NCBI RefSeq assembly: GCF_020804225.1 | Contig: NZ_WJBI01000001.1 | Coordinates: 112,942 to 176,941 of the forward strand | Length of the DNA stretch: 64,000 nt | Reading direction: 5' to 3' | DNA from: Methanosarcina sp. DH2 | GTDB lineage: Archaea > Halobacteriota > Methanosarcinia > Methanosarcinales > Methanosarcinaceae | Shown: positions 9,166 through 16,346 of the stretch, piece by piece | How positions within the stretch are numbered: the stretch's first letter is position 1 | Layout: every line of letters starts with the position of its first letter | Program-made: the position numbers and the translations under genes | The notes under the pieces: model-generated | The model's database searches: none | What the model saw: only the letters and a program-made list of their open reading frames with translations | Told to the model about the DNA's origin: nothing

Positions 9166-9825
9166 ATGGAGAAACGTGCCGAGATCAAAGTATATGGTCG
9201 AGTCCAAAAAGCAGGTTTCAGAGATTTCATTGATGAGATTGCTTTTAATCTGAATCTTAATGGATATGTTAAAAATCTTGATGACGGGACAGTCCAGGTT
9301 GTTTGCGAGGGTGATGAAGACACCATCAGCGAATTAATCAAAAAGATTAATATCACTCAATACCCCATCCGTGTAGAAAATATTGAAGTGACCTACAAAA
9401 AGCCAACAGGTGAGTATACAGAATTTGAACTTATCAGAGATGAGGATCTGACCACTGCAACTTATGAAAGAATGGATGCTGCTGCAAGATACATTCGGGA
9501 AATGAATTCAAACCTTGGCCAGAAAGTGGATTCTCTTGGCGGGAAGATTGACGTTCTCGGTGGGAAGATGGATTCTCTTGGCGGGAAAATCGATGTCCTC
9601 GGTGGAAAAATGGATTCCCTGGGTGGAAAAATCGATTTCCTTGGTGGAAAAATGGACTCTCTCGGCGGGAAGATTGATGTGCTGGGTAATAAAATCGATC
9701 ATGCCAGGGTGGAAATAACATCCGAAATCCGCTTAAGCCGGGATAATTTCAAGTCTCACCTTGACGAAAGAGTTTCAAGTATAGAACGCGAGTTGGCTCT
9801 TATTAAAGCAAAAGTCATCTCCTGA
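9166..9825 (+). CDS. Acylphosphatase domain fused to a heptad-repeat coiled coil
   Basis: Residues 1-90 are an acylphosphatase domain: VYGRVQKAGFRDF holds the phosphate loop and catalytic Arg, and GYVKNLDDGTVQVV holds the catalytic Asn, so hydrolysis of acyl phosphates is plausible. After an YERMDAAARYIREMNS linker come about eight tandem seven-residue repeats (KIDSLGG type, residues about 123-180) encoded by 21-base repeats. A charged helix (SSIERELALIKAKV) ends the 219-residue protein. Ordinary acylphosphatases are about 90-100 residues, so the tail is an addition likely to make it oligomeric. ATG 9166 matches the domain start. Confidence 0.85.
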   Translation: MEKRAEIKVYGRVQKAGFRDFIDEIAFNLNLNGYVKNLDDGTVQVVCEGDEDTISELIKKINITQYPIRVENIEVTYKKPTGEYTEFELIRDEDLTTATYERMDAAARYIREMNSNLGQKVDSLGGKIDVLGGKMDSLGGKIDVLGGKMDSLGGKIDFLGGKMDSLGGKIDVLGNKIDHARVEITSEIRLSRDNFKSHLDERVSSIERELALIKAKVIS

Positions 9826-10396: not shown

Positions 10397-11848
10397 TTAG
10401 TGCCTTCTCTTCAATATTACAATTCCTATCATGAGCGTCCCCAGAAAGCCTATGAAGAATGAAGCCAGTTTAGGGGGATTTTTTATGACACCTGCCTCGA
10501 GAATGTTTCCTCTCATCTGAGGTTCGAGATCTTCGAGTCCGAGTGAACTTGAGGTATCAAGGATTGACTGCTCGGTTTCCAGTGTGGGAGATGTTTTATC
10601 ATTTATCGAAACGCTGGTAGATTCTGAGCTGCCTTTTTGTTTTTTGTCTGACCCGTTTGATTTTTCGACTTCGCGTATTGTCAGCTCTGTCTGGGCTATT
10701 CCTGTAAGGCCTTTGCCTTTTTCATAGGCACCTGCAAAGAGGAGGTAGTCTCCTGGAGGAAGGTCGAAAGTTGTCAGAGAAAGTGTGCTCTGGTTCTCAT
10801 CTCCTATGCTTAGTGTGCCATTGCCTTCTCCGATCATGGTTTGAATTTCGGTTGTGAGCTCATCTCTGTTGAACTTGGACTCGTAGTTTGTAGAGTTAAT
10901 GCCGAATTCATTGATGATATCGATTCCGTTAACGAAGATCTCGGTCCCGGCTCTCGTCCCGTTGGAGCTGAAATTTATTTCTGCGCGGTAGGCGTCCTCC
11001 CTTATCAATAAGGCTCCGTATGTATAACTCCCCTGAGCCGGAGCTTTCTTCAGGTCCAGGCTGACTTCAAGGTCATCACATTCTTTGAGGTTGTTCGGGG
11101 ATTTTACTTTGAGTTCGTATTCCAGAACCTCAAAACATGTTGCTGAAAGAACCTTCCTTTCCGACTCGGATTTTTTATTCTCATTGCCTTCCAGCATTAT
11201 GAGTACCCCGTAACTGCCAGCCGGAAGGGGGTCAAGAGTCAGGGTGGCTGGAAGGTCTCCGTTTTCGTCCAGAGTTGCGGCGGTTATAAGGGTCGTGGAA
11301 TCAATGCTGTTGTCGAAGATCTCCTTAAGGCTCCTGGTGTTCTCTTGCCTGACATCCGTAAATGCCTCCTTAAGGAAACTGAGATTAAGTCCCTCGACCA
11401 GATACACATTAACTTTTTGCTGCTCGAAGGCTGCAGGACCGTTGAAATCAACTCTCACTTTCTCTTTTTCAGTGTAAAAGGGATGTGTGGAACACGGATA
11501 TGTAATAACTATCTCAGTATCGTCTCCGGAATCTGCCCCTGATTTCAGTTCAAGGGTCGCTCCCTCACTTTTCAGGTTGTCCGCCCCGTTGTATGTGAAA
11601 TTAAGAGGATGAGGGAGCCGAATTTCGTTTCCTCCGCTGAGGAGAATCCAGCCGCCTTCAGTCAGGCTCTCATTGTGGTCTGCAAAATAAACACTGTTTT
11701 CGTTTTTCTCTATAACTGCAATCCAGGGCTCTTCTTCAGAAAATGCCGCTGATGTTGAACTAAGTAACAAAATAAGAGTCAGAACTGTCAGGGCTAACCT
11801 GAATGTTCCAATATAAACTTCATTATTTATTCCTGCTCTTTTCTTCAA
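10397..11848 (-). CDS. Secreted, membrane-anchored surface protein
   Basis: This 483-residue protein has a signal peptide (LALTVLTLILLLSSTSAAFS), a large extracellular beta-rich part with several N-x-S/T sites, and an acidic/serine-rich stalk near residues 395-445. A C-terminal membrane segment (FFIGFLGTLMIGIVIL) precedes KRRH. The layout resembles a family of Methanosarcina surface proteins of unknown function (possibly the TIGR04279 group; recalled, not checked). The start is TTG 11848, seven bases after GGGGTG. It lies downstream of another surface-protein gene in the same direction. Confidence 0.7.
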   Translation of the reverse strand: MKKRAGINNEVYIGTFRLALTVLTLILLLSSTSAAFSEEEPWIAVIEKNENSVYFADHNESLTEGGWILLSGGNEIRLPHPLNFTYNGADNLKSEGATLELKSGADSGDDTEIVITYPCSTHPFYTEKEKVRVDFNGPAAFEQQKVNVYLVEGLNLSFLKEAFTDVRQENTRSLKEIFDNSIDSTTLITAATLDENGDLPATLTLDPLPAGSYGVLIMLEGNENKKSESERKVLSATCFEVLEYELKVKSPNNLKECDDLEVSLDLKKAPAQGSYTYGALLIREDAYRAEINFSSNGTRAGTEIFVNGIDIINEFGINSTNYESKFNRDELTTEIQTMIGEGNGTLSIGDENQSTLSLTTFDLPPGDYLLFAGAYEKGKGLTGIAQTELTIREVEKSNGSDKKQKGSSESTSVSINDKTSPTLETEQSILDTSSSLGLEDLEPQMRGNILEAGVIKNPPKLASFFIGFLGTLMIGIVILKRRH

Positions 11849-12108: not shown

Positions 12109-12894
12109 TTAACGCTTTTTAATTCTTGAATAAATCAAGAGTAATATCACTCCGGTTAAGATCCCTTCAATCCATATATTCCAGGCTTTCCAGGCTTTCC
12201 AGTCCCGGGAAAATTCTTCTTTTCGGTCCTCTTTTTCTTCCGATGAAGGTGCCGTATCTGAAAGCAGGTTCTCTGCCGGCTGCAGGGTAACCTGTTTTGT
12301 AACGTTCCCTGCCTTTATTTCAAAAATGCCTGCAGGTATCGATTTAGTATCGTACTTATAACTGAAATTCCCTGAGTCTACTTTGACCTGCTGGAGCCCC
12401 GTAATTCTGAGCTCGACATTAGAGGCGTTTGATTTCCCGTCAATCCTTATCCGATAGTTTCCTGGAGGGACTCCTGACTGGGAGACTGTGGCGCTCCCTG
12501 TTTTTGCTTTTGCAGTTCTGGTTATCCACAGTATCATCTTTACCCTCACGTTCAGGTCCTCGGCTCCTTTTGCCTGTACGCTAAAACGGTTACTGAACCC
12601 TGGCGAGATTTTCACGTCCTCAAGCAGATACTCGTATTTGCCGTCTAACACCTGAACATCCTTTTCAAAAGAAACCAGCACCTCTGCTGTCTCTCCCGTA
12701 AAATTGGCCCCTCTTATCTCTATCGTGTCCCCAACTACCGGATTTTCAGGGATAAGTTCCCAGTCGTTAGCGGCAGCAGTTCCGGGGACGGCAAGCAGAT
12801 ATATAACTGCAGAAAGCTAAAACAGGAGTCTCAGTTTTTGTCGATTCCTCTGGTTCTGGATGAAAGCGGAAGCGAGTTTCACAAAAAGTTTCAC
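12109..12894 (-). CDS. Surface protein with in-frame amber codon in its signal peptide
   Basis: A frame from GTG 12681 gives a 190-residue extracellular Ig-like protein with a C-terminal anchor (IEGILTGVILLLIYS before RIKKR). The same frame stays open upstream and encodes LSAVIYLLAVPGTAAANDWE, an obvious signal-peptide core and cleavage region with no usable start codon. It is preceded by a single TAG (12817-12819) and then by RQKLRLLF, a positively charged n-region, back to GTG 12894, which follows AAGGGGATT. Either the TAG is read as pyrrolysine, as Methanosarcina can do, giving 261 residues, or the gene is broken. Function of the mature protein is unknown. Confidence 0.6.
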
Positions 12895-12986
12895 GAAAAT
12901 AATCCCCTTAAAAAGCAAAATCCTGAATTTTTTTCGATACGGTTTGTATTTGAATCGCATAACTTCAGGTAATAAGCCGATAGTAT

Positions 12987-13891: not shown

Positions 13892-15400
13892 TTACGTTTT
13901 TCCCGGAGATTTGAATTCATATATAATTTCTTTTATCTGTTTATCTGTTTTCAGTATATAAAGATAATAAATACAGATAATTAAACCGGAGATTACAACA
14001 AGAAGGGCCTGATTTACGCCTGCGATTTTGAGAGCTGTAATGACTGCTCCTGCAGGGATAAAAAGGACAAAGTTTGAGAATACTATTTTAAGGGCTTTTG
14101 AGTTCGTTACCCCTGAGTAGTACATCATTTTCAGGCAAAGGTACCCGTAAACCACGATGCCTGATATTGAGAAAAGCATCAGGGCTATACGAGCACTTCC
14201 CAGCAGGCCTCCGATTGTGAGGGATAGAAAACGGGTTGTCAGATTGAAGAAATTGTAGTTAAAGCCAAAATGGTGTTCTTCTACTACAAGATATATCGTG
14301 CTTAAAGGGGATGAAATAAACCATATAAACGCCCAGAGGCTCAGGATCTGGGCGTAGACTCCTGCTTCTGTCCAGGCCCTTCCGAAAATCACGGTAAAAA
14401 CATCGCCTCCGACAATTGTGAGAATCAATATCGGAAACATGCCTATGAGCACGAGCATTCTGAAAACATTTTCAACAAGAATATTAAGGGTACCTTCGGA
14501 TACTGCCCTTGATGCCCTCTGGTAAAATACCTGTGAGATTGAACCTCCAATAAAGCTCATGGGTAACTGGAGCAGGCGGAACCCAAGGGAATAAAAGCCG
14601 ACTACCGCAGGAGCAAAAAAAGCTGAAAGGATAAAAGCCGGTAGCTGCCAGGAAATTGAGTTCATAAGGGCAGACCAGCTGTCTATAAACGGAAGGTTGC
14701 GGTGCCGTACAGAGCCTTCATATATCTTTTTCCAGCTCATGCTCTTTGTTATTAGCTTTCTGTCATCCCTCCAGATCTGTCCTCCAAGTACGAATGTAGC
14801 TACAGACTGGCCTGCAAGGCTGCCGCCGATTAAGCCGGCCGCAGTCGGGGGATGTTCCGCAAGCCCGAGGGTGATCTGGGTTGCAGTGGTCGAAACCGAA
14901 CTGGAAACCCTTGAGAAGGAGAGTCTCTTGAAGAGTTTTGTTCTTGAGTTCCAGTGGTTGAGTGCGAGAAAAACTCCGTTTACAAATACGAACGGGGGCA
15001 CAAGCCAGAGATAGTTTCCTATCTGCGGGGCATTTAGAAGATCAACTATCGGGGCTTTGAAGTACCAGACAAATGGTACGGTCAAACCGGTTACAGCCAG
15101 AACCGCGAGGATGCTCAGACCTAAAAGATTTACCGCTTCCTCGTCTGATTCAGGCAGCATTATAGAATATTCGTACCTCAGGCATGAAATCACGCTTAGA
15201 ATGCTGGTGATAGAAATATACAGAGCCCATACTCCAAAATCCTCCGGTCCGTAAAGGCGAGTCAGAACAGGAGCTGCCAGAATCGTAAGGATCTGAGCAA
15301 AAGTTGTTCCGCCTGCAAGTGTCAATACATCTGATACAAAACTTGCCTTCTTTTCGTTTTTAGATGGCTTTTCTTCTGTTTCTGCTGTCTTTTCATCCAT
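13892..15400 (-). CDS. Wzx-type polysaccharide flippase (1 of 3)
   Basis: This 502-residue integral membrane protein of the polysaccharide-transport family has about 14 segments. The typical start is FVSDVLTLAGGTTFAQILT, followed by LTRLYGPEDFGVWALY and later a VVGFYSLGFRLLQLPMSFIG motif. It would flip lipid-linked oligosaccharide across the membrane. In-frame codons reach 15496, but ATG 15400 (MDEKTAETEEK) is chosen because AAGGT lies upstream and the charged N-terminus precedes the first segment directly. It is most similar inside the window to 49771-51228. It ends the minus-strand block that starts at 21776. Confidence 0.9.
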   Translation of the reverse strand: MDEKTAETEEKPSKNEKKASFVSDVLTLAGGTTFAQILTILAAPVLTRLYGPEDFGVWALYISITSILSVISCLRYEYSIMLPESDEEAVNLLGLSILAVLAVTGLTVPFVWYFKAPIVDLLNAPQIGNYLWLVPPFVFVNGVFLALNHWNSRTKLFKRLSFSRVSSSVSTTATQITLGLAEHPPTAAGLIGGSLAGQSVATFVLGGQIWRDDRKLITKSMSWKKIYEGSVRHRNLPFIDSWSALMNSISWQLPAFILSAFFAPAVVGFYSLGFRLLQLPMSFIGGSISQVFYQRASRAVSEGTLNILVENVFRMLVLIGMFPILILTIVGGDVFTVIFGRAWTEAGVYAQILSLWAFIWFISSPLSTIYLVVEEHHFGFNYNFFNLTTRFLSLTIGGLLGSARIALMLFSISGIVVYGYLCLKMMYYSGVTNSKALKIVFSNFVLFIPAGAVITALKIAGVNQALLVVISGLIICIYYLYILKTDKQIKEIIYEFKSPGKT

Positions 15401-16346
15401 AGCCAGTACCTTAAAGCAAAGGAAGTCGTTTTTAAGATCAGGCGACTGGAAGTTTTTAAATCTCTGAAGTGAACATTTAAACTCCTGCGGTAACATTTGC
15501 CCTTTAAGAATTTCAACTCTTCAGAATTTCAGTACCCTGACCTTTCCTTACTTTTTTATCCTATGCCTTTTTTCTTCCCTTCCCAATTTCCTATACACAA
15601 ATTATCCTTTATAAACTCATCCGACCAACAGCACCTTTTTCCCATTAGTGATAACCTGCATTATAAAAGTATTAAATTACGGAACTTTTGCAGGCATGAT
15701 TAAGCTTTAAGAAAATCTGAATCTTTTTCCTGAGATGTGTAAAGTTAATGAAGCCATGCTGCACAATAAAACATATGGGAAATCTTCCTTTTCTGTAAAT
15801 ATAAATGAATAAAATCTTTTCTGGGAGGCTTTATAATCTGGAAGGCTTTATAGTCTGGAAGGCTTCATAGTTACTGGTTCCTATTAGTTCCTTTATCCAG
15901 ATGGTACTCTCAATGATATCTCCAGATGGTTACTTCTTGTTCCCGTTACCGGAGGACTATAATTTCTGATCAAATAATCTCTAATCACATAGTCTCTAAT
16001 CAAAAATAGTCTCTTACTCTACGGATAAAATAATTCTTGAACCTTTAACAGAAAGTCACTGTTAACTTTCTAATAGCCAGGATTCCTCAGGTCAACATCA
16101 ATCAGGTTAATCCTCTTGAGGCAGCCATATATCTGGCAAAAAAGAATTCTCTTTGAGCTGCCGATTGATGTCATTTTATTATTTTTGTAAATTAAGGTCA
16201 ATTTCGTCTTTTAACTGGTCTTTACTTTTAACTGATCTTTACTTTTAACGATTTTCACTTTTAATGATCTTTACTTTTTAGTGATCTTTATATTCTCGTA
16301 ATTTACTTAGCAACTATGATTTATTTCGCAACATAGCAATGTCTTT
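15401..16346. other. Long intergenic region with short tandem repeats
   Basis: I see no gene. Two tandem arrays stand out: about 15828-15870 (17-base units CTTTATARTCTGGAAGG) and about 16205-16290 (units near AACTGATCTTTACTTTT). A run of CTCTAATCA-like copies lies at about 15970-16015. It may contain the flippase promoter and the end of the upstream operon. Confidence 0.55.

What the first reader, a model, noticed from the sequence alone, without database searches (positions are those of the whole stretch)
12109..12894. In-frame amber codon inside a signal peptide: possible pyrrolysine read-through
The frame from 12894 to 12109 is uninterrupted except for one TAG (12817-12819). Just before it is RQKLRLLF and just after it LSAVIYLLAVPGTAAA, together a classic signal peptide; neither half has a start codon of its own that would work. 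Methanosarcina inserts pyrrolysine at UAG. So either a pyrrolysine sits in a membrane-targeting segment, where it would be cleaved off, or export is switched by read-through, or the gene is freshly broken.
Basis: partly seen in the sequence, partly recalled or inferred. Interest (0 to 1): 0.65.

Follow-up and report, generated by a model that had tools for sequence, protein, structure and literature searches.

The report
Conserved amber codon in signal peptide
A Methanosarcina surface-protein gene carries a "stop" codon (TAG) inside its export signal that related species have kept at the same place, so it is almost certainly read through as the 22nd amino acid, pyrrolysine, and then cut off with the signal, rather than being a broken gene.

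Summary
In detail: the minus-strand frame 12894-12109 is open except for TAG at 12819-12817, inside a signal peptide. The "freshly broken" option is rejected. Among 31 Methanosarcina genomes, syntenic orthologues in three more species (G007, G009, G027; 67-71% identical) have TAG at the homologous codon. Other orthologues have Trp, Cys, Tyr, Leu or Met there. Downstream of the TAG, TAG-TAG species pairs have dN/dS 0.17-0.26 at dS 0.8-1.1, the same as sense-codon pairs, so the protein has been made across the TAG for a long time. The genome has a complete pylTSBCD cluster, and TAG ends only 4.4% of its long ORFs. No start codon between the TAG and the mature chain is shared. In a sister genus (G037, G038) the syntenic orthologue has its own TAG at codon 11 of the signal peptide, a second, independent origin. 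Best reading: a real pyrrolysine codon in a cleaved signal peptide of a membrane-anchored surface protein, probably acquired and kept by drift in a tolerant segment, with partial termination expected. A pyrrolysine-dependent export switch is possible but has no positive evidence beyond recurrence and the early position. Read-through was not shown experimentally.

The parts
12817..12819 (-). In-frame amber codon (TAG), at the n/h boundary of the signal peptide; predicted pyrrolysine 17 residues before the predicted cleavage site
   Evidence: same TAG in L009, L010, L011
12109..12894 (-). Coding frame from GTG 12894 (AAGGGG at 12909-12904) to TAA; 261 residues with the TAG read as a residue
   Evidence: orthologues
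12895..12918 (-). Possible longer N-terminus from TTG 12918, in frame in eight of nine aligned orthologues and ATG in G014 (a frameshift breaks it in G027)
   Evidence: DNA alignment; translations
12769..12894 (-). Signal peptide: charged n-region, TAG, hydrophobic LSAVIYLLAV, PGTAAA cleavage motif (cleavage site inferred from sequence)
   Evidence: protein alignment
12112..12768 (-). Mature chain NDWE...: beta-strand-rich (two beta-sandwich-like regions in the model), then a low-confidence linker
   Evidence: AlphaFold model; no significant PDB fold match
12112..12177 (-). C-terminal membrane helix IWIEGILTGVILLLIYSRIKKR with basic tail (membrane anchor)
10397..11848 (-). Adjacent TIGR04279-domain protein with its own signal peptide and C-terminal anchor; sits beside this family in many genomes
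   Evidence: E 3e-118; synteny
13892..15496 (-). Polysaccharide-flippase-like gene upstream (assignment by sequence look); conserved neighbour, not part of the read-through feature
   Evidence: synteny

Best explanation
The TAG is a sense codon. Ribosomes carrying Pyl-tRNA(CUA) insert pyrrolysine at the n/h boundary of the signal peptide and go on to make a surface protein that is exported and held by a C-terminal membrane helix. Signal peptidase then removes the pyrrolysine with the signal peptide, so the mature chain contains none. Shown here: the TAG is conserved in four species, the downstream protein is under purifying selection, the pyl machinery is present, and no later start codon is shared. 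Inferred: actual pyrrolysine insertion, export and cleavage. Most likely origin: drift. In a pyl organism UAG is nearly a sense codon, and signal peptides tolerate bulky uncharged residues (Trp, Cys, Tyr, Leu or Met elsewhere). Some ribosomes probably stop at the TAG, lowering the yield and leaving a short peptide.
For: Same TAG in syntenic orthologues of G007, G009 and G027 at 67-71% identity. Species tree: G007/G009 and G000 lie on opposite sides of a clade that also holds G001, G010, G011, G008 and G023. dN/dS downstream for TAG-TAG pairs is 0.165-0.258 at dS 0.78-1.14, against 0.19-0.23 for close sense-sense pairs. pylT (CUA anticodon), PylS, PylB, PylC and PylD sit in one cluster in the same genome. 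TAG ends 26 of 590 ORFs of at least 200 aa. First in-frame start after the TAG is 46 codons on. No unusual RNA structure follows the TAG (z about -1), and none is needed (PMC9499178). [quoted passage not shown] acetivorans (PMC2933860). Independent second case in G037/G038, TAG at codon 11, ATG start, dN/dS about 0.3.
Against: No peptide or reporter data. Pyrrolysine would be absent from the mature chain, so ordinary proteomics cannot show it directly. G025, grouped with G009 in the gene tree, has TGG, so pyrrolysine itself is not required. PylS was not found over the cut-off in G027, a 60% complete MAG.
Confidence: 0.8

Rival explanations
1. Pyrrolysine-dependent export switch: the early UAG makes synthesis of this surface protein depend on Pyl-tRNA supply (methylamine growth, or competition with the release factor), so surface composition follows methylamine availability. 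Termination costs only a peptide of about 25-33 residues.
For: Independent amber codons arose in the signal peptide of the same syntenic gene in two genera. Both sit early in the gene and would be lost from the mature chain. The TAG is one of only three codons identical in all four TAG species over -11 to +5. In the bacterium Acetohalobium, UAG meaning depends on growth on trimethylamine (PMC8211752).
Against: G025, G011, G008, G023 and others have a sense codon at the site, so a switch is not required. No downstream structure was found. By rough hand estimate, retention of the TAG is not clearly beyond neutral expectation. No methylamine genes seen among the conserved neighbours.
Confidence: 0.18
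2. Plain nonsense mutation or pseudogene.
For: The TAG interrupts the frame in this strain. An orthologue was not recovered in some species (G001, G010).
Against: The same TAG is shared by four species, dN/dS is 0.17-0.26 downstream with no other stop or frameshift there, and among stops only TAG, never TAA or TGA, occurs at this site in the orthologues.
Confidence: 0.02
3. Translation starts after the TAG, which merely ends an upstream peptide.
For: G007 has ATG at +5 and G027 GTG at +3 after the TAG. A different paralogue (L112-L114) does look like this, with a possible start after its TAG.
Against: In the window's genome the first start is 46 codons past the TAG, inside the mature domain. 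G009 has only a TTG 7 codons on that would leave almost no hydrophobic core. No position is shared.
Confidence: 0.05

Closest known systems
M. acetivorans Thg1 (tRNA-His guanylyltransferase) with a neutral pyrrolysine
   Same: An in-frame amber codon in a non-methyltransferase gene whose relatives carry ordinary residues; pyrrolysine not essential (PMC2933860; PMC8211752)
   Different: Thg1 amber is reported in M. acetivorans only and stays in the enzyme; here it is shared by four species and lies in a removable signal peptide
Methylamine methyltransferases MtmB, MtbB, MttB
   Same: Conserved in-frame UAG in pyl methanogens
   Different: There pyrrolysine is in the active site and kept in each class; here the site varies and should be cut off
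Amber-containing TetR regulator and transposases of Methanosarcina
   Same: Predicted from conservation of an interrupted ORF (PMC1914089, PMC3639795)
   Different: Not exported proteins; this gene is not among the clusters named in the main text of those papers that I read
TIGR04279-associated Methanosarcinaceae surface proteins
   Same: Same gene family, order and anchor; paralogues in this genome (L002-L004)
   Different: Those paralogues have no in-frame stop in the matched region

Membership tests
Pyrrolysine-encoding (UAG-sense) gene of a pyl archaeon | Host has tRNA-Pyl(CUA), PylS and PylBCD | tested here: met
Pyrrolysine-encoding (UAG-sense) gene of a pyl archaeon | Amber codon conserved, or aligned with sense codons, across species | tested here: met
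Pyrrolysine-encoding (UAG-sense) gene of a pyl archaeon | Purifying selection on protein downstream of the amber codon | tested here: met
   second case
Pyrrolysine-encoding (UAG-sense) gene of a pyl archaeon | Pyrrolysine seen in the product | not testable with these tools
   Needs mass spectrometry or genetics; the residue would be in the cleaved peptide
Secretory signal peptide | Charged n-region, hydrophobic core, small residues at -3 and -1 | tested here: met
   By reading the aligned orthologues; no dedicated predictor was run
Regulated read-through switch | Product level changes with Pyl-tRNA supply | not testable with these tools
   No expression data
Regulated read-through switch | Amber codon strictly kept | tested here: not met
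   Sense codon in G025 and in the G011/G008/G023 group
Pseudogene | Relaxed selection or further lesions downstream | tested here: not met

The most novel reading that the evidence does not exclude
Amber codons in signal peptides act as pyrrolysine-dependent gates on export: surface-protein output follows Pyl-tRNA supply, and the unusual residue is discarded with the signal peptide. This arose twice in the same gene.
Probability: 0.17. Interest if true: 0.78.

Novelty: new member of a known kind. Interest (0 to 1): 0.52.

Why it matters
Few pyrrolysine genes outside methylamine metabolism are known. One that is conserved across species, lies in a segment that is removed, and arose twice in the same gene, offers a clean natural test of whether UAG codons persist by drift or are used for regulation. 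It also shows that gene callers will truncate or miss such proteins in pyl archaea.

Tried and rejected
Pfam and PDB sequence searches gave no confident family. The fold search of the AlphaFold model had no match at E <= 0.001, so beta-sandwich is descriptive only. A downstream insertion structure was looked for and not found. TAGs of L112-L114 (G036, G039, G037) were rejected as evidence because the sequence upstream changes frame between species and a possible start follows the TAG. TAG in G006 (L115) lies in the mature part in one species only. Screens of 1.2 Mb of this genome for other amber-interrupted genes or signal peptides found no second convincing signal-peptide case; the coding-score screen is insensitive to signal peptides. 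The codon-wise protein alignment misplaces the G027 TAG by three columns because of a three-codon insertion; re-anchors it.

Full report
OBSERVATION. The minus-strand frame from 12894 to 12109 is open except for one TAG at 12819-12817. Around it the translation reads MKLFVKLASAFIQNQRNRQKLRLLF-TAG-LSAVIYLLAVPGTAAA|NDWE..., with the layout of a secretory signal peptide; the mature part ends in a membrane helix with a basic tail. The claim that neither half has a start needs correction: GTG 12894 has AAGGGG upstream, and a TTG at 12918 lies in frame in eight of the nine aligned orthologues and is ATG at the equivalent place in G014. After the TAG there is no start for 46 codons. A one-stop frame alone is common by chance, so comparison was needed.

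COMPARISON. A search of 31 Methanosarcina genomes gave orthologues in the same gene order (acylphosphatase-like gene, TIGR04279 protein, this gene, flippase, deacetylase). G007, G009 and G027 carry TAG at the same place; G027 has a three-codon insertion further into the signal peptide and small indels before it. Others carry TGG (G025, G002), TGC (G011, G008), TAC (G023) or ATG (G014) at this site; Leu occurs in more distant homologues. All are bulky or hydrophobic residues.

TREES. In the rpoB tree G007 and G009 are on one side of a clade and G000 with G010, G011, G008 and G023 on the other (G025 and G027 lacked the marker). In the gene tree made without the TAG column G000, G027, G007, G025 and G009 group with support 87/88, and G025 (TGG) is sister to G009. 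The AU test rejects a clade of the four TAG rows alone (p about 1e-4). So one gain followed by one TAG to TGG change is simplest on the gene tree; on the species tree there is either an older gain with losses or more than one gain.

SELECTION. Downstream of the TAG, pairs of TAG species have dN/dS 0.165-0.258 at dS 0.78-1.14, equal to sense-codon pairs. A gene ended by its TAG could not keep this. Within the signal peptide the TAG, the CTG two codons before and the CTT after it are the only codons identical in all four species over the compared stretch; 49 of 214 mature codons are identical (in which the G027 signal peptide is misaligned but the mature part is not). By rough hand estimate, retention of the TAG is not clearly beyond what drift with rejection of charged residues and true stops would give; this was not tested formally.

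MACHINERY. The same genome has tRNA-Pyl (CUA), PylS (464 aa), PylB, PylC and PylD in a cluster. The PylS model passes its cut-off in 27 of 31 genus genomes; the exceptions include the 60% complete G027. TAG ends 26 of 590 ORFs of at least 200 aa. Folding of the 120 nt from or near the TAG gave z-scores about -1 or weaker.

A SECOND CASE. A family-wide search (112 genomes) and follow-up showed that in genus g5 the syntenic orthologue of G037 and G038, next to the TIGR04279 gene, starts at an ATG with a G-rich ribosome site and has TAG at codon 11: MKYILFSYRN-TAG-KIVKTLIFLF and MKFTFFNCRN-TAG-ERVKTLIVLL. The position is not homologous to the one in the window (28 residues before the shared DWE motif against 17), so it is a separate origin. 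dN/dS between the two is 0.38 over the downstream part and 0.29 in the mature domain. PylS is present in both genomes.

FUNCTION. The protein is a small anchored surface protein; the model is beta-rich with moderate confidence (mean pLDDT 73) and no significant solved relative. Family members often sit beside TIGR04279 proteins, including paralogous pairs in G022, G024, G010, G036 and G012 (compare with 69), suggesting a two-protein surface module. This gene was lacking at the flippase locus of G010, whose 1.5 kb flanks show no match.

MECHANISM. Most likely UAG is read as pyrrolysine, the precursor is exported, and the pyrrolysine leaves with the signal peptide. Steps shown: conserved codon, selection downstream, machinery, no shared alternative start. 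Steps inferred: insertion, export, cleavage, partial termination. Drift is favoured because sense codons replace the TAG in close relatives and because signal peptides are tolerant. A switch is the interesting alternative; recurrence in the same gene and the early, discarded position are suggestive but were noticed after the fact. No second convincing signal-peptide case was found in 1.2 Mb of this genome.

NOVELTY. Non-methyltransferase amber genes are known (Thg1, TetR, transposases). In the papers I could search I found no pyrrolysine codon reported in a signal peptide; supplementary lists were not readable, so this is not proof of absence. I file it as a new member of a known kind.

Noticed in passing
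L110 and L111 (G037:C49, G038:C7): Orthologue in a sister genus has an independent amber codon at codon 11 of its signal peptide, with ATG start and ribosome site.
   Followed up: yes
L112, L113, L114 (G036, G039, G037): Paralogue with a conserved TAG just upstream of a possible signal-peptide start; probably a leader-peptide stop rather than pyrrolysine.
   Followed up: partly
L115 (G006:C1:2857000-2862000): Family member with PKD-like repeats has TAG where relatives have Gln in the mature domain (ITASQ-TAG-VKVDS), in one species only; possible neutral pyrrolysine.
   Followed up: no
G000:C25:714337-714876, minus strand: Membrane-like frame MALWAVLLAGLA-TAG-IIGYIGYGYRINSVLAIANQ with no early later start; possible further amber gene, conservation not checked.
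   Followed up: no
G000:C26:44988-45524, minus strand: Frame with coding signal on both sides of one TAG, possibly a decaying or amber-read gene.
   Followed up: no
window 9166-9825, plus strand: Acylphosphatase-like protein followed by repeated GGKIDVLGGKMDSL units, unusual C-terminal repeat.
   Followed up: no
L044 (G027) and L046 (G011): Neighbouring flippase (G027) and deacetylase (G011) match in two overlapping frames, suggesting assembly or sequencing errors or real frameshifts; the indels before the TAG in G027 may be of this kind.
   Followed up: no
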